Shown here in pieces: positions 34,087 to 52,978 of a stretch of DNA of 64,000 nt. Position 1 is the stretch's first letter. Every line of letters starts with the position of its first letter. The translations under genes and the position numbers were made by a program. Source of the DNA: Bolinopsis microptera (lineage: Eukaryota; Ctenophora; Tentaculata; Lobata; Bolinopsidae); contig NC_087074.1 of NCBI RefSeq assembly GCF_026151205.1, positions 21,123,765 through 21,187,764 of the forward strand, in the 5' to 3' direction. The notes below the pieces were generated by a model. It saw only the letters and a program-made list of their open reading frames with translations, was not told the origin of the DNA and did no database searches.

Positions 34087-34200
34087 CTACCCGGACGGCG
34101 GGTGCTCCTCATGATGTCTCTGTCGTTCCTCTCGTCTCCGGTGCCTGAGCTCGTTTGCCTGCTTCTGTACTGCTGCGTGCTTCTTCCTGTTCTTTATCTC
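34087..34200 (-). CDS. PNT gene exon 4: last PNT helix and basic tail
   Basis: Acceptor TTGTCTCAG|GAG. Encodes EIKNRKKHAAVQKQANELRH, then RRREERQRHHEEHPPSG and stop. The first residues complete the final PNT helix (compare VLYELLQHILKQ in ETV6). Confidence 0.7.
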   Translation of the reverse strand, partial: EIKNRKKHAAVQKQANELRHRRREERQRHHEEHPPSG

Positions 34201-37162
34201 CTGAGACAACATTGAACATTACTTATGACATTAGTATGATAATATTAATAATACTTGTAAAATCCGGATTGGAGTATTGTTTATGAGTCGCATTGTTGTA
34301 ATGTATTTTGTGTAAAATTATCTTTATCCCGGTTACTGCGACAAGTAAAATGCTCTTATTAGGGAAAGGAGTTTACTCGACGTTTCAATGTAACTACATC
34401 GTATTCATGATCTCAAATTATTTGTCATATAGTAGTGTTGAAAGTATTAAAATTATAATTTGAGATCATGAATACGATGTAGTTACATTGAAACGTCGAG
34501 TAAACTCCTTTCCCTAATAAGAGCATTTTTACTTGTCGCAGTAACCGGGATAAAGATAATTTTACACAGAATACATAATAATACTTCTGACTATTTTCAA
34601 TCTAAATTTGATAGAGTCAATTCGTGGATACGATCGTAAATGTAATCATGACCATACAATTACACTGATGTGGCATTATTTCTAAACACGCTAAGATTTA
34701 TAATATCTGGGTTTTATATCAATATAATACCGTGTATAGTTACCACCTAGTTACCACCTAGTTACCGTGTATAAGATTAGGGCCCCTCTTCCCTGAGGCA
34801 CTCTGTACTCGAACATTGCCTTGGTCATCACGCAGATAGCCTTGCCGTTGAACCCAAACATATGCGGATCTATGTTGGGTATCTCGTACTTCCTGGAGCA
34901 CCATCGTAGCCAAAGCATCACCTCTGCTACGCTCCATGTGTACGGATCTGTTATGTGTTGCTATTAGTATTTATATTTGTTGGTTTACATATGGATACTT
35001 TACTAGTTTTACAACGTTTAATAGATGTGGATTCTGGTGGGAAGGTGAGGCATAGTAACAGTGATTCAGAGGTTTGATTTATTAAAAGTGGAAGCTGATT
35101 GGTTCAAATGCCTCAATTCCCCACCAGAAATAGAATCCACATACATAATTCCTAGAATTTCACGGTATGTGACTTATTACATAGCTGCCCCGCCCGACTG
35201 AAATTTTAATTTGTAAAATACCCCATGTATGCATGGGCACGTATGCCTGATGCCTTAAATGTCGTAATTACAAATTTGTGACGCATATATGGCACTGGCA
35301 GTGGCAGGCAATCGAGTTATTGTTTCCCCGTAAAAACATTCCTGCCTTTTACAGGTTGGAAGGCAACTATCAACCTACTCCCCTAAAATAGAAAAAACTC
35401 GAGATAATACTAAGAATAAAACATGACGTACGATAACTTTTATTAGTTGCTCTTATTTAGCTGGAGGTTGAAAGCTAATTATACTTCTACGCCCGGTGAC
35501 GTTAATAACTTTACAGATAACCATCACTGATGTGCAGGAGGTAACGCTGTCTGCGACTGTCACCCAATACAGATATTCAATATCATTATAAATACCACAT
35601 ATTTATATCCTACGACATGATATTTTATTTTTCAACATCTTAAACTTAAAGACCTTCGACCCCAAATTTAGGCAAATCATTTTGTGATTACAAGTTAAAT
35701 AATTAGTTTAAAAGCTACAATTTAATTATTGTGCAAAATGCATCCAAGTGGGATGGGATTGAAATATAGTAAAAATAAACCTATGGGGAGAATTGGGGGA
35801 GTATCAGGAGCGTTGTAGAATATACGAGCTTAGTTACCACCTAGTTACCACCTAGTTACCACCTAGTTACCACCTAGTTACCACCTAGTTACCACCTAGT
35901 TACCACCTAGTTACCACCTAGTTACCACCTAGTTACCACCTAGTTACCTATGGGGAGAATTGGGGGAGTATCAGGAGCGTTGTAGAATATCCGAGCTTAG
36001 TTACCACCTAGTTACCACCTAGTTACCACCTAGTTACCACCTAGTTACCACCTAGTTACCTATGGGGAGAATTGGGGGAGTATCAGGAGCGTTGTAGAAT
36101 ATCCGAGCTGCTTCTGTGTTCGGTCTCTCAAGGGGCGAAAAGGGGATCTCACCGGACAGCAAAACTGTAACATATGGATCATAAAATATAGGGAAATAAA
36201 TTCCGCGTAACATCAGAACATGATTGATTACTTGGAAATGACAGATTGCAAAACTCGACTGTAACTCAGCACGACTTTTACAGTAATCTTTATCGAAACT
36301 ATTTAAAACCAACATCCGATCGCGAAAATTGCTGGATATAACATTCGTTAACTTCAAAGAAAGACAAAGAATCAAGTAATAATCCTTACGATCAGCCATG
36401 GTGATGTTCCTTCTCCCTTGGTCGCCTGAACTACCAGAGGGCTGCTCCTCCTCCTCGACGTTGCAAGACACGGAATTGAACTCTTGTCCTAGGAAGCAGC
36501 CCTGCGGTCCTCCGTGTTCCTCTTTCTGTATGTGCGGCTTCTTGCGGAGAGGGGACCGGGTCAGGTCTCGGACTGGGTTTTCAGCCACAAAACAAGGGTT
36601 GTTTGGTCCAGGGTTCACCATTTGGCAACTGCTTCTTGGTACTTCCACCACCTGTTATAACTTATTGATAAATCACATCGCTCTCATTTTGGACAGATAT
36701 TATTTCAGCTATACAATTTTCTTTATTTATTATTATTCGAGATGGAAAAAAGAATTTAAATCAAAATACGCCCTAACAAACATGCTAACAAACATGCTAA
36801 CAAACATGCTAACAAACATGCTTATAAACATGCTAACAAACATGCTAACAAACATGTTAATAAACATGCTAACAAACATGCTAACAAACATGCTAACAAA
36901 CATGCTAACAAACATGCTAACAAACATGCTAACAAACATGCTAACAAACATGCTAACAAACATGCTAACAAACATGCTAACAAACATGCTAACAAACATG
37001 CTAACAAACATGCTAACAAACATGTTCTGTAAAGTAAGGGTTGTAGTTCATTAATACTTCATGAGGGAACTGGTCAGCTCCTCCTAAGATCTGTCTCCGT
37101 TCCATTGGTGAAATTTGCGGGTCCTCCTCATGCGGCAGTGTGTTGTAGTTTCCGTAGGACAT
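34087..37162 (-). CDS. PNT (Pointed/SAM) domain-only protein without ETS domain, 4 exons
   Basis: Exons in coding order: 37162-37022, 36651-36390, 34947-34766 and 34200-34087. Phases 0, 1, 0 fit and total 233 codons (232 aa plus stop). Residues 1-134 are low-complexity, Pro/Glu/Ser-rich. The PNT domain (about 136-212) reads HPYTWSVAEVMLWLRWCSRK, then IDPHMFGFNGKAICVMTKAMF, then EYRVPQGRGALILYTEIKNR. It carries the W, WL, NGK-LC-LTK and ILY hallmarks of ETS-family PNT domains such as ETV6/Yan. The protein stops 20 residues later after a very basic, Arg/His-rich tail ending HPPSG. PNT domains mediate homo- and hetero-oligomerisation of ETS repressors and kinase docking. A PNT-only product could act as Drosophila Mae/Edl does, by capping or antagonising ETS proteins; this is inference. 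All three introns hold minisatellites. Alternative splicing to a distant ETS exon cannot be excluded. Confidence 0.75.
34301..34576. repeat. Long perfect-looking hairpin (about 120-bp arms, 32-bp loop)
   Basis: The left arm 34301-34421 (ATGTATTTTGTGTAAAATTA ...) pairs with the right arm 34454-34576 with only a few mismatches. It sits in intron 3 of the PNT gene. No ORF. Either a foldback MITE or a source of double-stranded RNA from the intron. Confidence 0.9.
34737..34765. repeat. 11-bp CTAGTTACCAC repeat abutting the exon 3 splice donor
   Basis: About 2.5 copies start exactly at the donor of PNT exon 3. On the minus strand the intron begins GTAACTAGGTG GTAACTAGGTG. The same unit forms larger arrays at 35830-36060. 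Confidence 0.85.
34766..34947 (-). CDS. PNT gene exon 3: core of the PNT domain
   Basis: 60 codons plus 2 nt, acceptor CATAACAG|AT, donor ACG|GTAACT. Encodes PYTWSVAEVMLWL to GALILYT. This exon is the basis of the family call. Confidence 0.85.
35025..35142. repeat. Short inverted-repeat (foldback MITE-like) element
   Basis: ATGTGGATTCTGGTGGG and GGTGAGGCAT at the left are mirrored by ATGCCTCAATTCCCC and CCACCAGAAATAGAATCCAC at the right. A similar solo arm is near 3948. It lies in intron 2 of the PNT gene. Confidence 0.8.
35783..36110. repeat. Compound repeat: three ~50-bp boxes alternating with 11-bp arrays
   Basis: A box beginning TATGGGGAGAATTGGGGGAG occurs at about 35782, 35947 and 36060. 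Between the boxes are 10 and 5 copies of ACCTAGTTACC. The 36060 box continues into unique sequence toward exon 2 of the PNT gene. The order box-array-box-array-box shows repeat units nested at two scales. Confidence 0.9.
36390..36651 (-). CDS. PNT gene exon 2: Pro/Glu/Ser-rich linker
   Basis: Acceptor TTATAACAG|GTGGTG, donor GATC|GTAAGG (phase 1). Encodes VVEVPRSSCQMVNPGPNNPC and on to RRNITMAD. The segment has SP/TP-like sites (TRSPLRKK) and an acidic EEEEQPSGSSG run and looks disordered. Confidence 0.65.
36771..37021. repeat. 12-bp minisatellite (CATGCTAACAAA, about 20 copies) abutting a splice donor
   Basis: Runs directly up to the donor of PNT exon 1. On the minus strand the exon ends GAACAT and the intron begins GTTTGTTAGCATGTTTGTTAG. 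Each unit therefore repeats the exon-end CAT|GTTTGT context. It creates long open frames (TNML, FVSM, LLAC) on both strands that are not genes. Confidence 0.9.
37022..37162 (-). CDS. PNT gene exon 1: start codon
   Basis: 47 codons from ATG: MSYGNYNTLPHEEDPQISPM to NYNPYFTEH. The upstream frame is open to 37276 but reads as low-information hydrophobic sequence, so the internal ATG is preferred. The donor CAT|GTTTGT is non-ideal and is the weakest junction of the model. Confidence 0.55.
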
Positions 37163-40100
37163 TATCAGTTTGTGTAGGAGGTGCAGAACGAGAAGGCACA
37201 GAAACCTGAGTGATCGATCTGTCTGAGAAATTGGCCAACTGTTTTTGCAAAGACTTTTAACAATCAAGACAAACAAACTTTGTGAAATTTACAATGAATT
37301 GGAAAGAGCAGTAATATAACAATGCATCATGCGACAGATTTTTCTAGGAAAGCTTATGTTTGTTGATTAAACTCATAAATGGTAATCGTACAAATCTTCC
37401 CAGTTCCCAACAGTCTAAATTTTAAACATGTACTGTCGCTTCAATACTTACAGCCCGATCACTAAGTTTTCTGAACTTTTTAACTCCATTATTAATTATT
37501 ATTGCGACCACGAAGTGCTCGAACCAGTTCTAAGTTTGACGAGAGCTATTAGACAAGATGTTGCAAATTTCCAAAATAGGATTGATTTGAACCTATTCCC
37601 ACATAATTATTGCAAAAATAAGTTATTCTGGATACATGTTTAAATTTTAGTAATGAGCCAAGGAAGCAGCAAAAGTAACAGTATAACTACAATACGTTTA
37701 GAACAACCATGTTCATTTCTTAGTATTTCTAATCATATTGCAGCTACTGCAGTGTGCATCCGAAATGTGAATACCGGGTTTCGTCTAAAAATGTATCCTT
37801 TGAGCTTTACCATCTGCGTAGATCAAAAACAAACAATTAAACTTTTACCACAAAAGCTGTTTCCCGACCCTAACATTTTAATTTTCCCACTGGTCCTGTT
37901 GTCATGATTGTCTCTAAACGTCTCACAAACTAAAATTTTGTCATAAAGCAAACACAAGATATTTTTGCATAGAAAAGTTGTGCGACAACGTATTTATTCC
38001 TCCGGGATTTATTAGCTTTAGGTAGGGCCACTCTTGTGCAACGACTTCAAAAATTGCACCCATTTTGCCGTCATTATTAACTTCAGCTGTAGGAGTGGCC
38101 TGTGAATTAGAGAATCGAGCGATATGAGCTCAAGTGGAGTCGTGACGTCCAAGCCCTACCCTCAATTAAGTCGACAAATTTCAATCCAAATTATTGATTC
38201 TACACAGATTTACAACTCACCGAAAATAACCGATGCTGAACAGTCAAAACAAAGTTGAAAACGAATATTTGAAATGGCTACCTCTGACCTGTGGTCCGTG
38301 GGTTTATTTAAGGCAGTCGATACAGATTTGGCTTTGTTTTTGTTTCCTTTTATGGGAAAGGGTCGCCAATTTGTACCCCTGGCTGAACTCTTGCAATAGA
38401 TGTTCTTTATATGGTCCTGCAATAGGGTTTTACGCAACTTGATCCTTTAAGCTGTACGATTTAACCATCGCTTACTGCCTCCAACGTCACCACACACTAA
38501 CTTATTTATAAGATTTGATTTGCTAATACCCAGCACCCAGTTAGCTGATTACACCGCTTCTGGGGAAGCAAGACTAAATTGGGCACATGAGAGGGGTAAT
38601 TGATACTTAAAAATGGTGCAGAAATGTATAGGGAGATTATATGTGCATAAACTGCAGAATTTTACTGTAGGGCGTGATATCCTTATATAATATGTTGAAG
38701 ACAGCCATTTAAAGACAAGTGCCTGGAATAGGTAATGGTTGCGAGGGAGATGATGAATGCAGACAAAGTTACTGCTATTATTTATGGAATGATAAGGGCA
38801 TTATAATGTTCGGGCCCCTAAAAGTAGGCCAAGCCCTGACTCAGCGACTAAATGGTACCTATAAATATAATTTGCTAATGATGGTACCCAAGAGTGCTCT
38901 GATATAAATGTGGTATTATCAAAACCACTGAGTGGTACAAATATGATTTGATCGGGATAATTTGATAGTCTACTAAAATGTGCCAAACTCCAGATGGCAA
39001 TGAGTAAGGTAATTGAGTGGATCCGTGGTGTCACAAGCAATATTCAATAAGTGGTGTCACAAGCAATAAGTGGTGTCACAAGCAATAAGTCAGCTTTTAC
39101 CACTCCATCAGCCATCTATGATCTATTAATGTTGGGAACTGAATTATAACCGGGTCTGAATCTAGAAGCTGTTGTCCAATTATCGTTGACCTTAATTGCG
39201 ATGACGAACTATGACATGTTAACCCAATCGATCAAGGATTCTAGTAATCTCTTTATTTTTCAGTTGTCACCACAAATGTTAATACAAATATTAATACATT
39301 GGATAACCCTCTTGTTAAACCATCATTTGTATTCATTATATCTAGGAATAGCACTGAAACTTGTGGCCTGTCGTAAACAAAATCATAAATGATTTGTTTT
39401 GTATAAATAGTGCACTAGTGAAAAGAAAAAATCATTTCCATAATCAGTAAACTTTGTCAACAGCACGGTTTTTTCTACAACCCAACTCATGAACTTTATA
39501 CTAAAATAATTAATTTAGGTGATCGTCTAGCATTATCATTCAATGGAAACATTACCAGCCATCTATTTTTATCTTGCTAAAACTTCAATCATGACATCCT
39601 TATTGATAAGTACAAATGCCTTAACAGAGTTCAAGATGACTATTCCGTTCACCATGAGTTATTTCCTTGTTTCATGATTTATATTTCCTAGATAAATTTA
39701 AAATGCCATCCACAGCAATGGTCGAAAATTTATTTCCCACTTATTCTGGAGAAAGTTGGATCGTGAAGCTGTTTCAAATATGTAACTATGGTAACTAGTA
39801 TTGTAACTATGGTAACTAGTAGTGTAACTATGGTAACTAGTAGTGTAACTATGGTAACTAGTAGTGTAACTATGGTAACTAGAAGTGTAACTATGGTAAC
39901 TAGTAGTGTAACTATGGTAACTAGTAGTGTAACTATGGTAACTATGTTTGGATTGCCCGTCAAATTATATGATATATTAAGTGAAGCTGTTTCAAATATG
40001 TAACTATGTTTGGATTGCCCGTCAAATTATATGATATATTAAGACAAAACGGGACTACCTTATTCGGAATTAGGAAACGACCGAAATTTAGGTCTGCCTT

Positions 40101-41639
40101 GAATGCAGATGCATGGGTATAAGTCGTTGCCAATGCTTATACTTCTAGTACCATCAACCATGTTCTTTGATACTGATAGTTGGGACTAGTGGTTCCAACT
40201 ATTAAACGACATGGTTGATGGTACCCAGCTATTAGAATACCACCTCTATAATATCAACCATTCTAATGTGTTTTTAGAATAACTGAATTGGAAATTAAAT
40301 GATTTTATTACTGATATTTATAAAATGGCCGTTATTAATTGCGATTGATCGACGGAGTTAACTGCTAGCCTATTTAAAGCTAAATAACTGGGATGAAGAT
40401 TGCCAGGGTTTCCAAGAATATTCAGCTCATCGTATTTTTGTACAGAATTAAATTCAGTACAAAAGCATAATACCGACTGTTTTTTTCCGATCAATATCTT
40501 TACGGTGAATGCACGGATATGCAGAGCCCTTACTCTTAGGTTTGGAAGCAAGTAATAGAAATCCGACGGCGAGTAAGCATAGTACGGTAGCAGCTTACTA
40601 CTTACAATCCAATTGTAAATATAACTGGTCGATGGTAAACGACGTTTATTTGCAAATAATTCATTGACCAGATATATACAAAATTGTGCTTTCTCTTTCA
40701 ACATGCGTCCACGATTCGAGAAATAGAGAGTAAATGATGATACTCTTAAAAGATAAAATATCATTTTATTATTAAGGTGAAGAGATCAATCAAAGAAGCA
40801 AATATTGACCTTCACGATTCTACTGTTGTACGTGTGTTATAACATGTTCCGGATAAGTGATCATATCAAATATGAAATATGGTAGGAGTGTTTTGAATTT
40901 ATCGTGTTCTATCACAACTTTTTGATATCCTACTGCTTCAAGGGGTGTCATGAACCAATTCCAAAGTTACTACCACACAGTTTGATGTATATAACTATAT
41001 AAGTATAACATAGAGTGACATTTTCATTATAAAGTAGAATAGTATTTCTGAAGCACTGTTGTGCAGCATAAACTTAATACTTTCAAAGCTCAGTAGCGAA
41101 CATGTGAGATATTAATATATTGTAACTAATAACTACATCAGATTATACTTCAAATTGGTTTCAATGGTCCGACGTCTGGTTGGACAGGTAATCATATAGT
41201 ATGCATATGCATTGTGTGCACGAAGATGCATGATAAGAGGAGACTTATTGGCTGATATATTAGTATTTCTCTTAGATTTGTTGTGTAATAGTGTTATACT
41301 AACACATTATCTTTTGGAAGCGGTCTAAGTCCCGCTTCCTAACCATCAAAAGGGCCCTAAAAACTTTTTTGAATCGTTCTGTCCAAAATTGCCCACTCAA
41401 ATGGTTATTCTGGTTCTTTTTTGTGACACCTTGCACATTTGAATCCAATAAAAGCTTGTTTAATAGCTCCAATCAATGAAAAATTCGGATAAGCACAAAT
41501 TTTTACTAAAAAAGGTCACAAAATCGAACAGAGGCAGCATCTACGAAATTTAAAGACTTATATTTGACTATATATCGGCGTGTTGCTATAAACGGTTTAG
41601 CTTACGTCAGAAAGTCTACTTTCAGCTTCTTAACCCTTT
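37163..41639. other. Intergenic, repeats but no supported gene
   Basis: Contains a roughly 21-bp triplet with GTGGTGTCACAAGCAATAA (39036-39089), a 21-bp GTAACTATGGTAACT array (39782-39943) and a 64-bp duplication beside it (39945-40042). ORFs at 37428-37907 and 40318-40764 (148 aa, minus) have no recognisable domain. Confidence 0.4.
39782..40042. repeat. 21-bp minisatellite (GTAACTATGGTAACTAG core, ~8 copies) with flanking 64-bp duplication
   Basis: The core is the same as in the array at 51685-51885, differing mainly by ACTATGG for ACCATGG. The sequence next to it (GTGAAGCTGTTTCAAATATG and TTTGGATTGCCCGTCAAATT) is present twice, at about 39764/39980 and 39945/40009. Confidence 0.9.
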
Positions 41640-42125
41640 AATTTCTTTCTTGGGAGGTTCTCTCTCGCAGCACTCTTTAAATAGTGAGGGGGGGTATTGC
41701 AGGGTTGCAATTTGCTCTGAGACTCTGAGGTCACTTCCTCTCCGCTCCATCATATGTCCCATGTTTTACTGGACACGTGACTGAGTCAAATGTGGCTGTT
41801 ATAACTAAGTTAAAAATAAAATCTGCCAAACCAGTCGATCTCTCGGATGATGTCTCAGTATACTGCCCACCTTTGACGTAGTCATTTAAAATGGTGATTT
41901 CTGATATTGGGTGATATTGTTGACCAATTTCAGTCTGGTTAAATCTCCAGGATGTTTTAGTTAAAGTAACTGTGATTCTTTCTTGAGATTGAGAATACGA
42001 GTACAATTCCAAAACTTAGGCTACTAAAAGTATAAAATCTAAAACTTAGGCTATTAAAAGTAGAAAATCTAAAACTTACGCTATTAAAAGTAGAAAATCT
42101 AAAACTTAGGCTACTAAAAGTATGA
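41640..42125. repeat. Direct repeat A (left copy) with 30-bp tandem tail
   Basis: Begins CTTTCTTGGGAGG and contains GGGGGGTATTGCAG and CACCTTTGACGTAGTCATTTAAA. It ends in four copies of a 30-bp unit with AAAACTTAGGCTA (about 42010-42120). A diverged copy lies at 43645-44110 on the other side of the reverse transcriptase, and a partial one at 47036-47150. A minus-strand ORF inside (41731-42012) is unrecognised. Confidence 0.8.
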
Positions 42126-42144
42126 GTCCAAGGAATTACTTACT

Positions 42145-43635
42145 TTACTTTGGGCGATGCTCGATCGAAATCTCCTCCACTCTACGTCTCCAGATAGTTC
42201 TGTCGCACATAACTGTTCGGAGATCTTCTACCCGCAACCCTGTGTCCCTGGCTACGGTGTCAAGAAAAGAGAGTGGTCTCCTCCCACGCCTGAACTGTGG
42301 CAGCCGCCAAGGAAGGATGGTAGAGATGACCTGGTCTGAAGCTCTCATGCAATGCCCAGCAAATCTGGCACGTCTCTGAGCAACGATGGTGGAGATGGAA
42401 GGGAGGTCACCATAGATTTGCTTTAGGGTTGGATGCTTCTTCCATGAAAGATTCCTGGCTTTCATTAGGAGCCTGGTGTAGCACCCGTCGAGACGCTTCT
42501 CAAACTGCTTGTTCAAGGTCCAGGTTTCTGAGCCATACAGCAGAACAGGTTCGATGCATGCTCTGAAGAACTTGACTTTCAGCTGGTCAGAAATGCCAGA
42601 GGTCCATACCTTCTGCAGTTTGATACAGGCTGACCAAGCCATGCCTTTCCTGGTGTTGAAGTCCTTCCTGCTCTCTGCAATATATGAGCCCAAGTATTTG
42701 AAGTCATCAACCTGCTTGATCTGGTAACCGGATATTGAGTTTACGGGGGCAGCATCAGGAATGTTGATGGTCATGTATTCGGTCTTGGAAGCATTCATCG
42801 CAAGTCCGACATGTGCTGCTGCAGTCTCTAAATCCGAGAGCAGTTGCTGGACTTGCTCTATGGTATCGGCAGTCAAGGCTAGGTCGTCAGCGAAGTCAAG
42901 ATCTGTGACTCTGACCGCAGGTACTCTCCGACTTTGCCTGGGGATGATGGTTAGGCCATGGTCAAGAGTCATGCAGTTCCTAAGGACATAATCGAGGACG
43001 ATGATGAAGAGGAAAGGAGCGAGTGTATCACCCTGAAGGACCCCGATGAGTGTTCTAAAGAAGTCTGTAAGGCCGTCAATGGTTTTGACTCTGGAGTGCG
43101 ATGAGTCATACAGGAGCCTGATAGCATCAGTTATGGGAGCAGGGACGCCGTAGAGGGAGAGGATGTGAAACAAGGCATCCCTGTTGATACTGTCGAATGC
43201 TTTCGAAAAGTCGACGAACACGATAGCTGCTGATCGATTTCCGATTTTACACTCTTCTAGGATGCGTCGTAGGGCAAGTATCTGAGGGAGGGTAGATCTT
43301 CCTCTGCGGAAGCCATTTTGGTTTGGCCGCAGTAGGGGATCCAGGTATGGGTAAATCCGGTTGAGGATGAGTTTGTTGAAAACTTTCGCTGCAACCGGAG
43401 CCAATGAGATACCTCGATAGTTCCCGGGGTTGGTCAGGTCGCCTTTCTTGGGGATGGGTATAATAGATGCCGTTGTCCAGGCTTCAGGGATTACTCCATC
43501 AATTAAGGCCCTGTTGCAGAAACTGAGGAGGTCGTCACGAAGTTGGGGAAGCTTCCAAACTGAGGGAGGGATGCTATCTAGGCCTGGAGACTTGGAGGAC
43601 TTGATACTTGGAAATCTATTCAGCTCATGAAACAC
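42145..43635 (-). mobile_element. RTE-like non-LTR reverse transcriptase, 496 codons open, 5'-truncated
   Basis: Uninterrupted reverse-transcriptase ORF: SSKSPGLDSIPPSVWKLP, IIPIPKKGDLTNPGNYRGIS, GFRRGRSTLPQI, FVDFSKAFDSINRDAL, GVLQGDTLAPFLF, the catalytic FADDLALTAD, KTEYMTIN and DFKYLGSYI, then LLYGSETWTLNKQ and the RARFAGHCMR C-terminal region typical of RTE/RTE-X LINEs. The apurinic endonuclease is missing: homology stops at 43635 where direct repeat A begins. The intact frame implies a fairly recent insertion. It cannot be autonomous as it stands. Confidence 0.85.
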
Positions 43636-43644
43636 CTTAATGGG

Positions 43645-44110
43645 GCTTTCTTGGGAGGTCTCTCTCGCAGCATCTTAATAGTGGAGGGGGGGTGTTGCAG
43701 GTTGCCAATTAGCCTGAACTTGAGGTCACTCCTTAGCCGCTTCTATGTGCCCCATGTTAGGACACTGACTAGGGTCAAAGTGGCTGTTAGTAACTTAGTC
43801 TTAATAATCGCCAATCCATCCAGTCGTATCTGTCGATGAGTCTCGTTTATGCCCACTTTGACGTAGTCATTTAAATGGTGATTTCTGTATGGGTTTTTTT
43901 GACCAATTTTTTGGTTAAATCGTCAGGATGTTTTAGTTAAGTAACTGTGATTCTTTCTTGGAGATTGAGAATTAGGTACATTCCATAGGCTTCGTTTTTT
44001 CTAAAGTTTATTGAATCTAAAACTTAGGCTATTAAAGTAAAAAATCATAAACAGCTTGGCTATCTAAAAGTTAATCTAAGACACTGGTACTAAAGTTTCA
44101 TCCATAGGAT
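43645..44110. repeat. Direct repeat A (right copy), indel-rich
   Basis: Same order as 41640-42125 (CTTTCTTGGGAGG, the G-rich stretch, TTTGACGTAGTCATTTAAA, AAAACTTAGGCTATT) but with many small deletions. The many single-base gaps look partly like residual sequencing error. Confidence 0.75.
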
Positions 44111-46335
44111 TTTATGTACCTGAACAACAGTCAGTGAATTCGAGGGACAATTTGACCGGTTCTTTTCATTGACATTTATTGAAGAGGTCAAGTCGCAGGT
44201 CATGAACACTGAAGGATTAGAAGAAATGAAAGGTCATGTGAAATCAATATCTTCGCCGAAAAATGCAAGTTCAAAGTTGTACTTTTCAAGGTTTCAAATA
44301 AAATGATTATTACAATAAACTTGGTGTCGGATGCAAAAAAATGAAGTGTCAATGAAGGTCAAAACGAATAAAACCGTGCATGTGGTAAAGACCTGTCCTG
44401 AAAAATGCTTCGTGACGGTTAATCTAAAGTTTAAAATCTGTGAGTGGCTTTCGATTGGGAATGTAGACGAAAACGGTCCTTTGGGTCTGCTTAAGTCTGC
44501 ACAACAATTCACTGATACAAACATGGTGAAAGCTGACCGAAAATTAACCACTGTCGAATCACTTCGTGATGCGAGTATGGTAGTTAGTACCTTCCCTTTT
44601 CTTTTGCTTACTCGGGGGAACCTCGCTTGGTTCAACTTTATCAAGAATCAAGTTTCGTTCTAGATCATTTAGGGATTCTTGAAGGGCGGCAAAGGTTCTC
44701 GTTGGGTGAGTATTGGTTCCGCTCCTACATAGGGTTTCGCCTCAGGTCGTCGTAAAGTCTACAATCGTGAGAACGTGTTTTCATCTTCAATGATCGGTCA
44801 AATTGGTAGCTCGGCATATACCGCACCTTCCGGGTTTTGACGATATAAGAGCAGGCTATATGGTGCTTACAAAGGGCGTGACTAGGTATTTTTCGGTTAG
44901 ATGGTGATTTACGGTTCAATGGTTGAACATGAGGCACCATTCGGAACTGGCGCCAGCCTTTCACCTCTTCTACCAACTGAGCTGCAGGTTCAGGTCCGTT
45001 TTTTCAGCTGTTCTTTTAGATCGTGTTAGTAGACAGAAGGCGTTCGGTGTTTTGCCGCTCCTGCGAAACAGTTAATGAAAGTACTACGTAGTGCTGTTTT
45101 GAATTGGTTGGGGTAGGTCAACCTGCGTGATGATACTGACTGAAGGCTTTGCCGGAGATCTTCTATACCTTTGTACCATGGCAGATTGAGTGTGCGTTGT
45201 TCTACGTACGCCTGTCTGGCTAGACTTGTGCAGCCAGCCTGTTCCATTTGCTCAAGTCGGTTTGAAATACCCAAAAACTTGCTTTGATGCCTTTATCACT
45301 AGGGGGCAGCGGCCTGTATCACCCCATACACTCGCATTTGAAGTGTATACTGTATAGATATATTATTCAGTACCATACGCATATTCACTCTACAAGGTGC
45401 ACAAACTGTCTCAGGAACAACTTGAAAGGAAGACAGTACCTCCAACAAGACTCGTACATGCTACTAAAGGAGGACCACTTTACCGACTTGAGAAGTATGT
45501 CACCCATTTGAGTCGGAAATACTAATATATATACTATAATACGGAAGAGTTCTTACTGGACACACCGAATTTTGATGATTATATGAATTTTGCTTGATAG
45601 AGTGCTTATCTAAAATGTTTTACAGGCTTTAAAAGTGTAGTTTATTTACGAAGGATTCAAGCCTAACATTGTGTGTTTCCCTTCGAGTCCTAATGCAATG
45701 TATATTATATAATTATATAAAATGGGCCCATTCACTGAAAATATAATTGTTGTAAACCTCATACCAACATGTGCGAGGTAATCAATGGGCTATAGTGCCT
45801 AGTTGGGTAACCATCGTCCCCAGGATGTCGTGCCACAGAGCTTCGAGCCTCAGGACGTTTTGTACCAGTACATTGAGTTACAGTGACCTAGTGATCTCTA
45901 GGTTTTAGTGACTCGGGCCCTAATTCTAGAACTGATCACAGAATAAAATTTGCATAATAAAGCATCATAATTTGTGCCACATTGAGGTCAAAATACTAGC
46001 ATTAGATCCATTATAGTTTGATAGAGAAAGAAGAGATTAGTGAATCGTACTTCTTCTATTTGACTACAGCTGCAGGGTGTTACAAGACTCGTGTCAAAAT
46101 TTTGGATGACTCTCAAAATCTAACAAATGAGACAAATGGTTTAATTTTTGTTTTAAATTGTTGAAAAATTATAACTTTTTATAATGCATATCAAAAATAA
46201 CTCTAATATTTTAACAATGTTTCGAACCAAGCCCCCTTTCTGCATATAATAATAATAATAAAAGGTTTTGGACCCTCGGAATTAGCATATTGTAATTGTC
46301 ACGTTTTACCATGTAAACTGTCTAGTTTCAACTTT
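44111..46335. other. Possible retroelement debris, no supported gene
   Basis: Two adjacent minus-strand ORFs (45026-45274: LARQAYVEQRTLNLPWYKGI...; 44725-44976) may be one decayed protein of a mobile element, but I cannot name the family. Another ORF pair overlaps on opposite strands at 44294-44663. The rest is AT-rich. Confidence 0.3.
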
Positions 46336-46623
46336 TTACTTTTTAGCCTCCATTCTGATATTGTTTTTCTGCTGATCTAATGTTTTTGGGACTGGATCTG
46401 AATAAACACGATCTTCAAGATAGCCCCACAAAAATAAATCAGTCAGATTCAGGTCAGACCTGTAAGGAGGCCAGCTGAAGTCTGCTTTTCTTGAGATCAG
46501 TCTTTCTCCAAAATGCTCCATTAGCCAAGCCAAACTTTCGTGCGAGCAATGTGGAGGAGTCCCGTCTTGTTGGAATATACAGGTATTTTTTCTAAGTACT
46601 GGGATAACTTTTCCATGCAACAT
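46336..46623 (-). pseudogene. Mariner-type transposase catalytic fragment
   Basis: Encodes CIFQQDGTPPHCSHESLAWL and WPPYRSDLNLTDLFLWGYLE, then DRVYSDP. These are the second catalytic Asp region (QQDGxPPH) and the SPDLxPxDFFLWGxLK block of insect-type mariner transposases. N-terminal HTH and first Asp are missing. The family appears the same as the HTH fragment at 19501-19917, but they are independent insertions. Confidence 0.85.
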
Positions 46624-48904
46624 AGCAATGCAACATTGCTGTCCTTATCGTCTGCCTTCTCTAAATCATATCACTGGATCAACAGAAACAATTTTTTAAA
46701 TGTTAAATAAGTAGAAAGTATTGACTAAAGCCTAAATCACATAATGGCATCACTTTCTTCGGCTTCTCGTTCAGTTATTCTGAGTTACAAAAATTAAAAA
46801 ATTAAAAGGATTTTGAAATGCCTTCGAGCGTTCGTAATAATGTGTTTTCAGAATTATATCCCTTCACGCAACGTCCTGTCAAATTACGTCCCTTTGGGAT
46901 TAGGTAATTTTTATAAGAGGGCGTATATTTTCGCTAGAAAACTTCAACATTTCTTACAATAAACGTTTTAGAGCTCATGTGTAGTTGTCGGACGGAAGAG
47001 TGCCTGCGAACTGCGAAGGCGTACAAATATTTAAATTTTGTCTCAGTGCCCACCTTTGACGTAGTCAAGAGTGGCGCCTCTTGACATTAAGTGAGATTGT
47101 TGACAAAAACCTAACATAATATCTTCAAAGTTCCCTGTAAGAATCACAATATTATTATTATTAGGAATTGAGGTGTTAAATTCGATGGAACTTTTAAAAT
47201 GGAAAGTCAGATCAATAGCGTGAAGAGGAGATGTAGCTGGACAATGATGAACCTAAAAACTATTGCCCCTTATGTTCGTTTCATCTACAACCTTACAACA
47301 TAGAAGACTGAACCGCGGACTTGGTTCCCTTCTATAAGAAGTCCCACATACTCCCTATACTCTATAGGACAACACATCTTCTTTAAAGTATTCTATTAAC
47401 CCACAAATCAGTTCACGGTACTGCACCTCATGGTTACCTCCAAGCTTTACTGGATGTTAGTGTAGTAGAAATAGAAAACCATGATTGAAGAAACCGGGTG
47501 ACGGTCTCATGCTCAAGATACCAAAGAATAAAAATTCCAAAGTTGATTATCTAGAGTCTAGACGTTTTTCAAGCCATGCACCGGTTGCATATAACACTTT
47601 TTCACTGATGTTTAGATATTTATAACTGATACTAACTTTTTCAAGCGGATGTTGAAAAACCATTTATATAATTAGTTTTTTTTCTGCACTCTATTTTGTG
47701 TCACTGGTTCTACTTACTAAGATCTGTATTGTCTTGATTGATATTTCATTGTACTACCTTATATACTTTCACATACAATAAATTGTACGGCTTCTGCTGT
47801 TACTTATATTAGTGTGGTTTCTAATAAAAGATATTTTAATTTTGTCTTTGCCTTATGAGTTATACTTTTGTTCACATTTATCATATTCTCATATCACTGA
47901 AAGTCAGCCGCTCTGACATGGTTAATCACCTTCCTTGTGTTGTGTCCTCTTGTCCGAAGATTTTTGGACGAGCTATCAGCTGTGATCTCTCATTCACCTA
48001 AGTTGCTGAGCGCTATTTTATCTTTGTTGAAAAAGGGTATAGTAAGAAAATTTGTTTCTGCAGTTGGACTACCAAAACACTGTATGAATAAAGAAATTCA
48101 TATAAAATTCAAAGTGTAATATTGTCATTGCAAATGCAGGCGTTTTGAGATTTATTCCAGGTAACCTCTCTCAAAGTTTAAAAGTGTGGTGCAAAGACTA
48201 AGTCCCCAACTTCCAGTTCCGTTAAAGTCAGATTTCCGTCACAATTGGTGAACAAACCATTTCAGCATCAAGGATGTGTTGAACCTTATAGTTGCTGGTA
48301 TAAGTTATACCAGAATTTGTGTCGTTGAGAGTGTTTGTTGAGGCCCACATAATGAGGCTCAAATTCGGTGGGAAATAAAATGCTGGTGAGATGGCATGAT
48401 TCTTAGAATAATCATAAATCACAGTACATATATAGCATATGATTATGTTGGTAAACAAGTCGTTTAAACCATAACCATGCACATTGCCGTGGGATATATT
48501 TGTCTTTCAATTTAAGTTAATCGGTTGTTTGACGGTTTGTTGAAAGATCGATCAAACAATACTATATTCGGTCAATGCAAGCTCAAGAGTTCCTGTCAAC
48601 TCTGCGATACATGCAGGTTTACTTTATCAGAAAATGCTAAATGCGGACATGCTTATTTTAACTATTTTTGACTTTTAACAGCAAATTTACGCCAAATTCG
48701 GCATGAAGGTTATATTAAAAGAATCTAATAAAAATAAAAACTATTACTGGTACCTATTATTAAAGTACTAGACCCTGGTCATTAGGAAAGTTCGCACGAG
48801 ATGGACCACGTTTTTCCCAATTTAACTTTAGAAGATTGTCACAGCAAGAACTTTTAAGATATTTATTATGGAGATATTTTAAGATAGGCATATGATATTT
48901 CACA
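46624..48904. other. Intergenic or distal intron of SLC6 gene, nothing recognised
   Basis: Includes a partial copy of repeat A (47036-47150). Short ORFs at 47937-48119 (+) and 48228-48482 (-) have no recognisable domain. I searched by eye for the SLC6 TM6-TM12 exons expected on the minus strand and found none. Confidence 0.4.
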
Positions 48905-48907
48905 TGT

Positions 48908-49113
48908 AACAGTAACTCCAATGAGAACTGCTACTGGTAAAGCTATAAGAACTGTTACTAACCTAACAGTAACTCCAATACGAACTGCTACTGGTAAAGC
49001 TATAAGAACTGTTACTAACCTAACAGTAACTCCTATAAGAACTGCTACTGGTAAAGCTATAAGAACTGTTACTAACCTAACAGTAACTCCTATAAGAACT
49101 GCTACTGGTAAAG
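48908..49113. repeat. 57-bp minisatellite containing the SLC6 exon 6 donor, about 3.6 copies
   Basis: The unit (AACTGCTACTGGTAAAGC in it) repeats at 48910, 48967, 49024 and 49081. Being 57 bp it stays in frame with exon 6, adding LPVAVLIGVTVRLVTVLIA blocks if the intron is retained, and each unit repeats the CCA|GTAGCA donor context. Confidence 0.9.
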
Positions 49114-49249: not shown

Positions 49250-52200
49250 CTGAAGTGTTAGTGGGCTGGGTTACCTAGTAACCTAGTGACCTAGTAAACT
49301 AGTTACCTAGTAACCTAGTTACCTAGTAACCTAGTAACCTAGTAACCTAGTGACCTAGTAGTGATCTTGATAACAAATAAGATTACCTTGAGAACGTAAT
49401 CAGAGATAAAGTTGTCCACCCCTTCATCTTGCCACGGCACCTTGTTGTTGATCGGATCGAAACTTTTAACAAAGTAAATCCCACTCCAGCCGAGCACTAT
49501 AACATTGTATACGGCTACAATAAACCCTCCAATAACAGTGGCTACTCCTACTCCCCGTAATCTGGGATTCAGGTTCCCAAACGCTTCAACTGCTCCTCCT
49601 ACACATGTTAGGTTTATCAGAGCGGAGAGTAGGGTTACTATGGTTACTATGGTAACTATGGTTACAACACATTCAAACTGCTCTCATGTTCATTATTTCC
49701 TTAGAAATAGATATAACTTTGATATTTACCTTGAAACATTTGACCTATAGTTAGCTCCACGGTTAAAAGTGGCATCCCTATCAAAACCAAAGCCAAAACG
49801 TACGGTATCAGGAAGGTAAATCCACCGTGTTTACTAAAATATAGCGTTATTTTCCGGAGGGGGGGGGGGGATTGTATATTATTTTAACCGGCGATTCATT
49901 CACCCCTGAATATTATTACATATTAGGTATTGTTACCATGGCAACAACTCATTCACCCCTATACTAGCACGTGATGCCTAATTAGCACGTGATGCATAAC
50001 TAGCACGTGATACCTAACTAGCACGTGATGCCCATATAAGGAGCTGAGATTTCCATCCAGTTAGTTACTTACTTAACCAGATAAGGAAATTTCCACATGT
50101 TAGGTAGACTACAGGAAGCAGCTACAGAAGCGAACCAGAATGTAAGTTTACCAGCCCACCTATCCCGACGTTTCACCTGGGAAACAGTTGCTAGGTTACA
50201 GTTGCTAGGTTACACCTGGGAAGAGAATGTAAGTTTACCAGCCCACCTATCCCGACTTTTCACCTGGGAAACAGTTGCTAGGTTACAGTTGCTAGGTTAC
50301 ACCTGGGAAAAGAATGTAAGTTTACCAGCCCACCTATCCCGACTTTTCACCTGGGAAACAGTTGTTAGGTTACAGTTGCTAGGTTACACCTGGGAAAAGA
50401 ATGTAAGTTTACCAGCCCACCTATCCCGACTTTTCACCTGGGAAACAGTTGCTAGGTTACAGTTGCTAGGTTACACCTGGGAAGAGAATGTAAGTTTACC
50501 AGCCCACCTATCCCGACGTTTCACCTGGGAAACAGTTGCTAGGTTACAGTTGCTAGGTTACACCTGGGAAAAGAATGTAAGTTTACCAGCCCACCTATCC
50601 CGACTTTTCACCTGGGAAACAGTTGCTAGGTTACAGTTGCTAGGTTACACCTGGGAAGAGAATGTAAGTTTACCAGCCCACCTATCCCGACTTTTCACCT
50701 GGGAAACAGTTGTTAGGTTACAGTTGCTAGGTTACACCTGGGAAAAGAATGTAAGTTTACCAGCCCACCTATCCCGACTTTTCACCTGGGAAACAGTTGC
50801 TAGGTTACAGTTGCTAGGTTACACCTGGGAAGAGAATGTGAGTTTACCAGCCCACCTATCCCGACTTTTCACCTGGGAAACAGTTGCTCTTATATTTGAT
50901 CCTTCGAACAGTTCGGAAACAGTTGCTAGGTTACAGTTGCTAGGTTACACCTGGGAAGAGAATGTAAGTTTACCAGCCCACCTATCTCGACTTTTCACCT
51001 GGGAAGAGAGCGAAATGTAAAAAGAAATAACTCATGTGTAACATGTGTAACATGTGTAACATGTGTAACATGTGTAACATGTGTATAAATGTAGTAACTG
51101 AAATTAATTAATTTATTATTGTAACATCTGGTCAAGTGTAACTTTATTGCTGATTAAGAAAGCAAAGATTAAGAAAGCAAAGTTAACTCACGTGAACAAC
51201 AGCTGGCAGCAATTATTCCAGGACCCGGGACCGTCGACGAGTCCGACTCGGCGCGCGTCCTGGTAGGTTATAAACCTACATTTACAATAAACAATTGGAG
51301 TTCACACCACTTTTGTCGTTTTTCAGGTAACTTTGACGTCAATTTTATGGACGTCAACTTAATTTGTGCGTCAAAAATTTGTTTCAAAAATGTATAATAC
51401 TATTCTATATTTTAGTCAGCAAAAGTACTGAAGTAAGGGGGTTGGGGTAAGTCATTGTCTTTAAGGTTAGTAAATTCGAGTGCCATGAAATATTACAAAG
51501 TTTATTGCATTGAGTTTGTGACTTGGATTATTAAGCATTTAAATTCGTTATCTAGATTTTTTCCCAAGAAAATGTGACTTGCAATTTCTAACACTGTTAA
51601 ATATTATCATGTCCCTCGTCCATTTTTTATATCCGTGGTTTTCGATATCAAGTTAAATGGAATCAAGCATTTAAAACCTTATTTGTAACCATGGTAACTA
51701 GTAGTGTAACCATGGTAACTAGTAGTGTAACCATGGTAACTAGTAGTGTAACCATGGTAACTAGTAGTGTAACCATGGTAACTAGTAGTGTAACCATGGT
51801 AACTAGTAGTGTAACCATGGTAACTAGTAGTGTAACCATGGTAACTAGTAGTGTAACCATGGTAACTAGTAGTGTAACGATGGTAACTGTCTCCTCACCT
51901 AGCAACCAAACTCTTCTCTACAACTATCTCCTTCTTCAACACCGACCACTTGATTGGTAACTCTTAGCAGTCCCTGCTTAAGTTTTATAGATTACCGTTA
52001 GCAACAGTGGCGTAACCACTGGTTACCAACCCCTCCCCTCTTCTGAGCACCCTTCCCATTTCTTCCTTGACTGTTACCTTATCTTCTTATCAGGAGTGTG
52101 TACATCCATCTCAAACACCTTGCTGGATTTGGGAGTTGTCATTGGGACAGAGTCTCTGGAAAAACTTCATCAACAGTTAATCACGTAGGTAAATTGTAGG

Positions 52201-52643
52201 CTGATATATTAAATTACCATGGTAACAGCTGATAATAATATATTGCGTTACCATGGTAACTGATCACTTTATCACCTAATTTCATTGGGTTGGTTATGGA
52301 CATTGGACAAACATACAAATATTCCGTATGATTTTTTGAGATTATTTCACGGATTATAAGTTAAGATAGCTTTAGTTGCAAATTATTTGTTGCCATGGTT
52401 ACTGACTCCCAATCATCACGTTGCCATGGTTACTGACTCACAATCATAACGTTGCCATGGTTACTGACTCACAATCATCACGTTGCCATGGTTACTGACT
52501 CACAATCATCACGTTGCCATGGTTACTGACTCCCAATCATCACGTTGCCATGGTTACTGACTCCTTTCAGGTAAAACTCTGTCTCTGATGTCTTCTGGAG
52601 CAGGATCGCCGCCAACTATTCCTGACGTGTTCGTTAATGTCAT
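49106..52643 (-). CDS. SLC6-family Na+/Cl- symporter, N-terminal six exons (partial)
   Basis: Exons in coding order: 52643-52558, 52155-52078, 50159-50073, 49833-49730, 49598-49387 and 49249-49106. All phases fit (2, 2, 2, 1, 0, 0; 237 codons). A soluble N-terminus (MTLTNTSGIVGGDPAPEDIR, then KVFEMDVHTPDKKIRW) leads to TM1 (VAASCSLPNMWKFPYL; SLC6 has GLGNVWRFPY), TM1b-TM2 (NKHGGFTFLIPYVLALVLIG, MPLLTVELTIGQMF), TM3 (NPRLRGVGVATVIGGFI, VYNVIVLGWSGIYFVKSF), an extracellular loop with VPW, and TM4-5 (RVLLAVIICWFLVFFCVFRS, LRSIGAVVKILAPLP). The Asn of the sodium site is kept; the monoamine-specific Asp of TM1 is Ser here, so a monoamine transporter is unlikely. A normal SLC6 has 12 TMs and about 600 aa; TM6 onward is not seen. 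Every intron contains a minisatellite. It ends 0.3 kb from the TTAGGG array. Confidence 0.8.
49269..49360. repeat. 10-11-bp CCTAGTAA minisatellite in SLC6 intron 5
   Basis: About nine copies of TTACCTAGTAACCTAGTGA-type units between exon 6 and exon 5 (intron only 137 bp), so the array fills most of the intron. Confidence 0.85.
49387..49598 (-). CDS. SLC6 exon 5: TM3 and extracellular loop
   Basis: Acceptor CCTAACATGTGTAG|GA with a branch-like CTAAC, donor AAG|GTAATC. 70 codons plus 2 nt. Encodes GAVEAFGNLNPRLRGVGVAT and VYNVIVLGWSGIYFVKSF, the SLC6 signature around PxxxGVGxA. An earlier acceptor at the TAG of the adjacent GTAACCATAG repeat would also keep the frame. Confidence 0.8.
49730..49833 (-). 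CDS. SLC6 exon 4: TM1b-TM2
   Basis: Encodes KHGGFTFLIPYVLALVLIG and MPLLTVELTIGQMFQ, matching NGGGAFLIPY...GIPL..LE..LGQ. Acceptor ATATTTTAG|T, donor CAAG|GTAAAT. The best-conserved exon of the gene. Confidence 0.88.
49965..50046. repeat. ~18-bp repeat with CACGTG E-boxes (4 copies) and a CArG/TATA box
   Basis: CACGTG at 49968, 49986, 50004 and 50022, each inside TAGCACGTGATGCC-like units. The last runs into CCATATAAGG (50032-50041). The array ends just before the donor of SLC6 exon 3 (intron 3). Confidence 0.85.
50022..50043 (+). promoter_or_regulatory. E-box plus CArG/TATA composite, copy 2
   Basis: Exact 22-bp match to 31727-31748. Within SLC6 intron 3. It may be an internal regulatory element or a transposed fragment; the sequence alone does not show activity. 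Confidence 0.4.
50073..50159 (-). CDS. SLC6 exon 3: TM1
   Basis: Encodes WAGKLTFWFASVAASCSLPN and MWKFPYLV, donor AA|GTAAGT. The acceptor CGGGATAG|G fits the phase of exon 2 (AG+G = Arg). An alternative acceptor TTTCCCAG|GTGAAACG, 17 nt upstream, has a better pyrimidine tract but the wrong phase for exon 2. Confidence 0.75.
50138..51010. repeat. 87-bp minisatellite, 10 copies, made from the 5' end of SLC6 exon 3
   Basis: Units start at about 50138 with an 87-bp period. On the minus strand each contains TTTCCCAG|GTGAAAAGTCGGGATAG and then GTGGGCTGGTAAACTTACATTC, that is the acceptor and first codons (RWAGKLTF) of exon 3. The unit nearest exon 3 is the exon itself. The ninth unit carries a 26-bp insertion (TTATATTTGATCCTTCG...). 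The long plus-strand ORF over the array is an artefact of an 87-bp unit. Confidence 0.9.
51011..51684. other. SLC6 intron 2, unique part
   Basis: Starts with a CATGTGTAA 9-bp array (51032-51080, about 5 copies), then unremarkable AT-rich sequence with no exon seen. Confidence 0.5.
51685..51885. repeat. 21-bp minisatellite (GTAACCATGGTAACTAG core), about 9.5 copies
   Basis: In SLC6 intron 2. Self-complementary core GTTACCATGGTAAC. The same family occurs at 39782. Gives VTMVTSS/VTIVTLL open frames on both strands which are not genes. Confidence 0.92.
52078..52155 (-). CDS. SLC6 exon 2: cytoplasmic N-terminus
   Basis: Acceptor GTTTTTCCAG|A, donor AAG|GTAACA. Encodes DSVPMTTPKSSKVFEMDVHT and PDKKIR. 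Low conservation expected; called because phases link exon 1 to exon 3. Confidence 0.6.
52389..52560. repeat. 31-bp minisatellite repeating the SLC6 exon 1 donor, about 5.5 copies
   Basis: On the minus strand exon 1 ends GGAGTCA and the intron begins GTAACCATGGCAACG; every unit ends GGGAGTCA or TGAGTCA followed by GTAACCATGGCAAC. Each unit therefore copies the exon end plus donor. Confidence 0.9.
52558..52643 (-). CDS. SLC6 exon 1: start codon
   Basis: ATG, then TLTNTSGIVGGDPAPEDIR and DRVLPERS, phase 2 at the donor. The frame is open upstream, so the true start could be earlier. Confidence 0.55.
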
Positions 52644-52972: not shown

Positions 52973-52978
52973 TTAAGG

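What the first reader, a model, noticed from the sequence alone, without database searches (positions are those of the whole stretch)
34087..52643. Private minisatellites sit in nearly every intron of two neighbouring genes, several starting at the splice junction
Seen: PNT introns carry a 12-bp array touching the exon 1 donor, an 11-bp/50-bp compound array, and an 11-bp array touching the exon 3 donor. SLC6 introns carry a 31-bp array copying the exon 1 donor, 21-bp plus 87-bp arrays (the latter copying the exon 3 acceptor), an 18-bp E-box array, GTTACTATG repeats, a CCTAGTAA array, and a 57-bp array copying the exon 6 donor. The coiled-coil gene intron 3 (9321-9540) and the neurexin-like exon 2 donor (5002-5065) show the same. 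Units are rich in GTAAC...CTAG, i.e. donor-like starts and AG ends. Known: tandem duplication of AGGT-containing sequence is a proposed route of intron gain. Inference: here tandem duplication at splice junctions is creating or lengthening introns, or recurrently adding alternative splice sites.
Basis: partly seen in the sequence, partly recalled or inferred. Interest (0 to 1): 0.85.

Follow-up and report, generated by a model that had tools for sequence, protein, structure and literature searches.

The report
Minisatellites copying exon–intron borders
In this minisatellite-rich animal genome, short tandem repeats often spread across the borders between exons and introns and change intron length; the same kind of structure was described before in lancelets as "mirages", and there is no proof here that new introns are being made.

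Summary
The arrays are real, and six in the window copy or touch splice junctions: PNT exon 1 and 3 donors, SLC6 exon 1 and 6 donors, SLC6 exon 3 acceptor, and a Sushi-exon donor (not neurexin). The window is subtelomeric; PNT is duplicated on C10, and the SLC6 "gene" is a 5' fragment with close copies on C7. Compared copies keep their splice sites while copy number changes (21 vs 36, 2.7 vs 6.7, 8.6 vs 2.5), so arrays lengthen existing introns. Seven interior SLC6 loci, picked by homology and size before looking for arrays, show the same: 6 of 23 intronic arrays overlap a junction, one with about 28 exon-end/donor copies. Random placement predicts 3.7 (P 0.12; within 5 bp 9 vs 4.6, P 0.014), so much of the effect follows from about 12% minisatellite DNA and short introns. 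Modelled coding exons hold no array (5.9 expected). Units are not enriched in AGGT and are poor in GTAAG; their shared GTAAC pairs are an RFX X-box-like palindrome, about 245-fold over-represented. Such structures are published as lancelet "mirages". Intron birth is not shown; one interior intron built of GT…CAG units is the best candidate.

The parts
36773..37024 (-). 12-bp CATGTTTGTTAG array (21 copies) at the donor of PNT exon 1; overlaps the exon by 3 nt; 36 copies in the C10 duplicate
   Evidence: border counted by hand
36390..36651 (-). PNT gene exon 2 (borders AACAG|GTGGTGG and GCTGATC|GTAAGG)
   Evidence: borders counted by hand
35831..36109 (-). compound 112/11-bp array (GGTAACTAGGT) in PNT intron 2
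34766..34947 (-). PNT exon 3, Pointed/SAM_PNT domain (PF02198, E 9.3e-13)
   Evidence: borders counted by hand
34737..34766 (-). 11-bp GGTAACTAGGT array (2.7 copies; 6.7 in the C10 duplicate) at the exon 3 donor
52558..52642 (-). SLC6-fragment exon 1 (upper end uncertain), donor GAGTCA|GTAACC
   Evidence: reading of the sequence
52389..52563 (-). 31-bp array (5.6 copies) containing the exon 1 donor and an X-box-like palindrome
52078..52155 (-). SLC6-fragment exon 2 (MTTPKSSKVFEMDVHTPDKKI); no DNA match in the C7 copies, whose homology stops at 51210
   Evidence: reading of the sequence
51684..51888 (-). 21-bp array (9.8 copies) of GTAACCATGGTAAC X-box-like palindromes in intron 2
50137..50888 (-). 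87-bp array (8.6 copies) copying the end of intron 2, the acceptor CCCAG| and ~38 nt of exon 3; 2.5 copies in C7, about 1.5 units in L030
50073..50176 (-). SLC6-fragment exon 3 (VKRRDRWAGKLTFW...FPYLVN)
49958..50032 (-). 18-bp E-box array in intron 3 (4.1 copies; absent in C7, 1.9 in L030)
49730..49833 (-). SLC6-fragment exon 4
49633..49665 (-). 9-bp GTTACTATG array in intron 4
49387..49598 (-). SLC6-fragment exon 5 (donor placed by reading; the aligner put it elsewhere)
49273..49360 (-). 8-bp CCTAGTAA array in intron 5 (11 copies; 8 in C7, 12 in L030)
48907..49113 (-). 57-bp array (3.6 copies, 19 codons in frame) copying exon 6 end and donor TTAG|GTTAGT; homology to C7 ends here
5002..5064 (+). 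33-bp unit, 1.9 copies, duplicating the end of a Sushi-domain exon and its donor AAAG|GTTAGT
52972..53625 (.). interstitial TTAGGG telomere-repeat array; also present in the C10 duplicate

Best explanation
These are minisatellites of the type called 'mirages' in lancelets. Tandem duplications arise all over this genome. Those inside coding exons are removed by selection. Those inside an intron, or straddling a splice junction, survive, because one intact copy of the junction is still used. Slippage or unequal crossing-over then expands and contracts them, so introns change length and carry spare copies of donors, acceptors and exon ends. Shown here: the arrays, the copied junctions, copy-number change between close paralogues with unchanged splice sites, and absence of arrays from the coding exons examined. 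Inferred: neutrality, the slippage mechanism, and that the spare sites are mostly unused. The GTAAC-rich content of many units comes from an X-box-like palindrome that is strongly over-represented genome-wide and, outside arrays, often sits between short direct repeats; that it promotes the duplications is a further inference.
For: Junction-overlapping arrays in 5 of 7 interior SLC6 loci, at donors and acceptors (one of the 5, C5, has an uncertain border). Arrays cover 12.2% of 160 kb random interior DNA, and 11.6% of 200.9 kb interior and 11.1% of 133 kb subtelomeric DNA at a stricter threshold. 0 arrays (score 50 or more) in 9,812 bp of modelled coding exons vs 5.9 expected, and 23 in 24.9 kb of introns. 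PNT: same five splice anchors (0-1 mismatch), 12-bp array 21 vs 36 copies, 11-bp 2.7 vs 6.7. SLC6 window / C7 / L030: 87-bp 8.6 / 2.5 / about 1.5, 18-bp 4.1 / none / 1.9, intron 3 239 / 1028 / 121 bp. Random placement explains a large part of the junction contacts.
Against: Two C7 introns are almost nothing but array: 36 and 27 bp remain once the array is reduced to one unit, and 73 bp in the C2 intron, shorter than each of the 44 array-free introns modelled in the interior loci (77 bp or more); this fits poorly with arrays growing inside an ordinary older intron. The exon count leaves out an array at C5 550-598, just upstream of the modelled start and possibly coding, and one short exonic repeat below the threshold (C5 1658-1684, score 40). 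The test set is one gene family.
Confidence: 0.7

Rival explanations
1. Tandem duplication at splice junctions is actively creating new introns (AGGT or boundary duplication followed by use of the copied sites).
For: C2 interior SLC6 gene: the intron at C2pos 254.0 is 92% a 35-bp array of GT...CAG units, flanked by a 9-bp direct repeat ACAG|GTATG at donor and acceptor, and no other modelled interior locus has an intron within 2 residues. Two C7 introns have only 27-36 bp left outside the array. Precedents: PMC4974935, PMC3443670, PMC3087553.
Against: 5 of 6 junction-array introns lie within 2 residues of an intron of another paralogue. Among the introns that could be compared, no recent paralogue pair shows one present and one absent. 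AGGT is not enriched in units. The C2 unit does not look like its exons (by eye).
Confidence: 0.15
2. The arrays are regulatory: X-box-like (RFX) and E-box units act as intronic enhancers, and position near splice sites is incidental.
For: RFX-consensus matches 271 vs 1.4 expected in 133 kb subtelomeric DNA; half-site spacing genome-wide, matches vs reversed control: N2 7330 vs 149, N1 2489 vs 99, N3 461 vs 54; X-box consensus from passages of PMC3414849.
Against: Densest near chromosome ends, in arrays of varying unit length, with copy number differing between recent paralogues: more like mutational turnover than conserved regulation. No excess in the interior SLC6 loci (1 vs 0.8). The junction arrays of C2b, C1 and C6 hold no X-box pair.
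Confidence: 0.1
3. Array location at splice sites is pure chance from a high minisatellite load in short introns, with no excess at all (a special case of the best explanation, so the odds overlap).
For: Overlap 6 of 23 vs 3.7 expected, P 0.12.
Confidence: 0.3

Closest known systems
Lancelet "mirage" minisatellites (Adh3, globins, TnC, PGBD5; PMC3087553 section 16 read, PMC3902484 one passage read)
   Same: Tandem units span intron-exon boundaries at either end of introns, many carry AG/GT signals, unit length (10-160 bp in the passages read) and copy number vary; proposed as a source of new introns.
   Different: Here seen across several members of one gene family and two further window genes, in a genome smaller than a lancelet's (lancelet size recalled), with some introns almost wholly made of array and many units holding an X-box-like palindrome. 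That splicing ignores the copies, suggested by RT-PCR in lancelets, is not tested here.
Internal tandem repeats in human genes of segmental duplications (PMC2812944, abstract and section headings read)
   Same: Minisatellites varying between recent paralogues, some at exon-intron boundaries, where they can form novel introns.
   Different: There half of the repeats lie within coding exons; here no array was found in the 9,812 bp of coding exon examined.
[quoted passage not shown] PMC3443670 passages read, PMC4974935 abstract and results read)
   Same: Duplication across a boundary supplies splice signals; the C2 intron is bounded by ACAG|GTATG repeats.
   Different: No new intron position is demonstrated here; most junction-array introns have a paralogue intron nearby.
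RFX X-box (PMC3414849 passages read)
   Same: GTTRCC N1-2 RGYAAC sites, spacing preference.
   Different: Thousands of copies, many in arrays; no binding evidence.
VNTR enrichment in human subtelomeres (PMC7608644, abstract read)
   Same: Subtelomeric, gene-associated tandem arrays.
   Different: Array density is about equal in the subtelomeric and interior samples here (5.4 and 5.6 per 10 kb); only X-box-type units are concentrated.

Membership tests
Mirage minisatellites | Tandem units span an exon-intron boundary and contain both exonic and intronic sequence | tested here: met
   87-bp and 57-bp (window), 53-bp (C2b), 99-bp (C1), 44-bp (C6) units
Mirage minisatellites | Both 5' and 3' boundaries affected | tested here: met
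   overlap at donors (C1, C2b, C6, C5) and acceptors (C2, C6)
Mirage minisatellites | Many units carry AG/GT splice signals | tested here: met
   e.g. CTTCAG|GTACTATC, TTAG|GTTAGT, ACTACAG|GTATG; but AGGT is not enriched over array units in general
Mirage minisatellites | Copy-number instability | tested here: met
   (between paralogues, not alleles)
Mirage minisatellites | Normal mRNA splicing despite the copies | not testable with these tools
   no RNA data
Intron gain by tandem duplication | Intron absent in relatives, phylogeny supports gain | tested here: inconclusive
   of the 6 junction-array introns only C2pos 254.0 lacks a paralogue intron within 2 residues; no sister species
Intron gain by tandem duplication | Source element (duplicated exonic AGGT segment) identified | tested here: inconclusive
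   9-bp ACAGGTATG at both ends of the C2 intron, but unit not exon-like; AGGT not enriched in units
RFX X-box sites | GTNRCC N0-3 RGYAAC with spacing preference | tested here: met
RFX X-box sites | Bound by RFX and controlling ciliary genes | not testable with these tools
   no binding or expression data

The most novel reading that the evidence does not exclude
Some introns of this genome are born as tandem arrays: an intron bounded by a short AG|GT-containing direct repeat (C2 SLC6 intron, ACAG|GTATG at both ends) is amplified as GT...AG units, giving an intron made of head-to-tail intron-like units with AG|GT at each joint. In parallel, an X-box-like palindrome dispersed in more than nine thousand copies acts as a hotspot where local tandem duplication starts, supplying much of the raw material.
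Probability: 0.2. Interest if true: 0.8.

Novelty: new member of a known kind. Interest (0 to 1): 0.48.

Why it matters
If mirages are common in an animal far from lancelets, splice-boundary minisatellites are a general product of minisatellite-rich genomes, and such a genome is a good place to watch introns lengthen, slide or possibly arise. The X-box-like palindrome gives a concrete, searchable candidate for what starts the duplications.

Tried and rejected
Rejected: that units are splice-like in general. AGGT 23 vs 19.6 shuffled (112 interior arrays) and 27 vs 28.1 (72 subtelomeric and window arrays); GTAAG 5 vs 11.6 and 3 vs 11.2; CTAG 19 vs 21.4 and 27 vs 27.0. Rejected: that the arrays are private or confined to chromosome ends. 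Rejected as evidence of gain: the shifted SLC6 intron 3 (FPYLVN^KHGG in the window/C7 family, GG^GAF in C2, C1, C10); the flanks show no duplicated segment by eye, so loss plus gain and sliding cannot be told apart. Association of junction arrays with exactly shared intron positions: 1 of 6 vs 21 of 58, P 0.66; within 2 residues 5 of 6 vs 35 of 58, P 0.40: no signal.

Choice and dropped rows. Seven of the interior PF00209 loci were examined (C1, C2 twice, C5, C6, C8, C10), at least 1.9 Mb from a contig end, picked by hits and compactness before arrays were looked at; C6 also because it is close to the window family. Others (on C11, C53, C10 twice, C5, C8, C2) were not examined. Several of the seven loci are partial. 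For some searches the first modelled C1 intron (N-terminal artefact) was dropped, and two modelled introns were merged into one in both C6 and C8; 64 introns remained. The C1 first 773 bp were left out of the exon total. The C5 and C8 junction contacts rest on weakly placed borders. TRF rows below score 50, 60 or 40 were not counted, and overlapping rows were merged. In one search intron lengths of the window genes are partly read by hand, one is taken from C7 (278) and one assumed (500). The C7 residual lengths were typed.

Organism: total size, 12 contigs of 16.3-26.2 Mb seen (242.9 Mb together) and a C12 of at least 6.7 Mb fit the figures for Bolinopsis microptera (265 Mb, 13 chromosomes, 346 scaffolds; passages of PMC11797021 and PMC10232365); this genome has 232 contigs and nothing here proves the name. 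Print searches for a prior report. One search ("ctenophore" with "minisatellite") listed two papers, neither on this by its title and abstract start.

Full report
The window. It is G000:C3:21123765-21187764 of a 264.65-Mb genome in 232 contigs. C3 is 21,284,423 bases long, so the window ends about 97 kb from a contig end. A block from about 31.6 to 47.8 kb is duplicated at C10:186-202 kb, followed there by the telomere-repeat array that lies at 52972-53625 in the window; the long matched stretches are 88-99% identical, most of them 93-98%. Genome size and contig lengths suggest the ctenophore Bolinopsis microptera; this is an inference.

The observation. Exon borders were read from the sequence and from homology. 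PNT exon 3 is a Pointed domain (PF02198, E 9.3e-13), and SLC6 exons 3 to 5, typed from the spliced C7 copy, match PF00209 positions 1-120 of 524 (E 1.7e-32). Six arrays overlap a splice junction: PNT exon 1 donor, PNT exon 3 donor (by one base), SLC6 exon 1 donor, SLC6 exon 3 acceptor, SLC6 exon 6 donor, and the donor of a Sushi exon. The 87-bp unit holds the acceptor and about 38 nt of exon 3, coding RDRWAGKLTF. The 57-bp unit is 19 codons in frame. The window SLC6 is a fragment: PF00209 finds two exons in it, a longer relative lies at C7:512-523 kb and another copy at C7:57-60 kb, and DNA homology to them stops at 48907, the end of the 57-bp array, and at 51210.

What paralogues show. In PNT the five splice anchors match with 0-1 mismatch between window and C10, while the 12-bp array has 21 and 36 copies and the exon 3 donor array 2.7 and 6.7. 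The 30-bp array at 42011-42122 has 3.7 in both. In SLC6 the 87-bp array has 8.6 (window), 2.5 (C7) and about 1.5 units (L030), the 18-bp array 4.1, none and 1.9, the 57-bp array 3.6, 3.1 and 2.1. Intron 3 is 239, 1028 and 121 bp (the C7 excess is not an array that TRF reports). Arrays therefore change the length of existing introns; among the introns that could be compared, no copy pair shows one gained.

I built the protein of an interior SLC6 gene by hand (C2) and aligned it with a spliced aligner to seven interior SLC6 loci, its own included, giving 64 introns with a median of 221 bp. 20 of 64 introns hold an array. Striking cases: C2b (L039), where 680-2181 is a 53-bp unit repeated about 28 times, each with the last 27 nt of the exon and 26 nt GTAC...CAG; C2 (L034), where the intron 2322-2806 is 92% a 35-bp array whose last unit is the acceptor; C1 (L037), a 99-bp unit with 28 nt of exon and the donor; C6 (L031), one array at a donor and one at an acceptor. 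No overlap was found in C8 and in the modelled part of C10, which have arrays 5 and 2 bp from a donor.

Is it more than chance? For each array I asked how often a founder unit of that length, dropped at random on the intron or across its edges, would overlap a junction. Expected 3.67, observed 6 of 23 (P 0.12); within 5 bp expected 4.62, observed 9 of 23 (P 0.014). Short introns and long units make junction contact common. The clear filter is the exon: 0 arrays in 9,812 bp of modelled coding exon vs 5.9 expected (P 0.003), 23 in 24.9 kb of intron. One array just upstream of the C5 model (550-598) may be coding and was counted neither way, and one exonic C5 repeat lies below the threshold.

Do units look like splice signals? 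Not in general. Among 112 interior and 72 subtelomeric and window arrays, AGGT is near the shuffled level and GTAAG below it; pairs of GTWAC within 6 bp are strongly enriched (4 vs 0.6 and 11 vs 0.4). Those pairs belong to an X-box-like palindrome. GTNACYATGGTWAC gives 9,512 forward and 9,143 reverse matches, vs 41 and 35 for the pattern read backwards; a perfect palindrome matches on both strands, so the distinct sites number between about 9,500 and 18,700. With RFX half sites, matches on both strands are 7330 vs 149 for spacing 2, 2489 vs 99 for spacing 1 and 461 vs 54 for spacing 3. In 133 kb of subtelomeric DNA there are 271 RFX-consensus matches vs 1.4 expected, 24 of them outside arrays; in 160 kb of random interior DNA 26 vs 0.4, 2 outside arrays; in the interior SLC6 loci 1 vs 0.8. 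Lone GTWAC half sites are not in excess outside arrays (546 in 133 kb of non-array interior DNA; 602 expected over the full 160 kb). A thinned pattern hits 11 of C1-C13, with 30 matches and 0 in the control. Of 20 single sites outside arrays, 8 lie between direct repeats of at least 7 bp within 30 bp, against 6.3% of 3000 random positions; by eye two pairs of the 20 are paralogous copies. This fits a link between the motif and local duplication; cause and effect are open.

Intron birth. Of the junction-array introns, 5 of 6 have a paralogue intron within 2 residues and 1 of 6 is exactly shared, so most look old. The exception is C2pos 254.0: from donor to acceptor it reads as GT...CAG units, with ACAG|GTATG at both ends. 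In the C7 gene two introns leave only 36 and 27 bp outside the array, against a minimum of 77 bp among 44 array-free interior introns (the 77-bp one is itself doubtful; the next is 110). These are candidates, not proof.

Known kind. Lancelet genes carry minisatellite-like duplications of intron-exon boundaries, named mirages, with AG/GT signals, length instability and apparently undisturbed splicing, proposed to lead to new introns (PMC3087553 section 16; PMC3902484 passage). Human paralogues in segmental duplications show related changes (PMC2812944 abstract). The features that could be tested here are met; splicing could not be tested. Hence a new member of a known kind, with the X-box link as the least expected part.

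Noticed in passing
genome-wide; window 10688, 49932, 51684-51888, 52247, 52389-52563: X-box-like palindrome GTNACYATGGTWAC: 9,512 forward and 9,143 reverse matches vs 41 and 35 in the reversed control; RFX-like spacing preference.
   Followed up: partly
L029:3812, L029:5224, L032:5351, L033:4960, window:10688: Single X-box-like sites lie between short direct repeats in 8 of 20 cases vs 6.3% of random positions.
   Followed up: partly
window 31583-47820 and 52972-53625; C10:185496-202122: Subtelomeric segmental duplication including an interstitial telomere-repeat array.
   Followed up: yes
L034:2322-2806: Interior SLC6 intron built of GT...CAG units with a 9-bp direct repeat at donor and acceptor.
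   Followed up: yes
L029:2404-3279 and L033:120-376 (C7 gene): Introns almost wholly made of 8-bp GTTACTAG/TAACCTAG arrays (105 and 30 copies), 5-14 bp from the splice sites.
   Followed up: partly
L019:2848-3506, L024:783-1409, L027:5268-5926: The same set of short arrays (10/20/30-bp units, CGCTATATAGCG-like) recurs in three random interior loci: probably a dispersed element carrying tandem arrays.
   Followed up: no
window 16134-16998: 171-bp unit repeated 5.0 times at 94% match (57 codons if coding).
   Followed up: no
SLC6 paralogues, C2pos 44-55, 200-209, 246-270, 321-330, 387-395: Introns of paralogues cluster at near but not identical positions and phases, as if sliding or repeated gain were frequent; alignment error not excluded.
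   Followed up: partly
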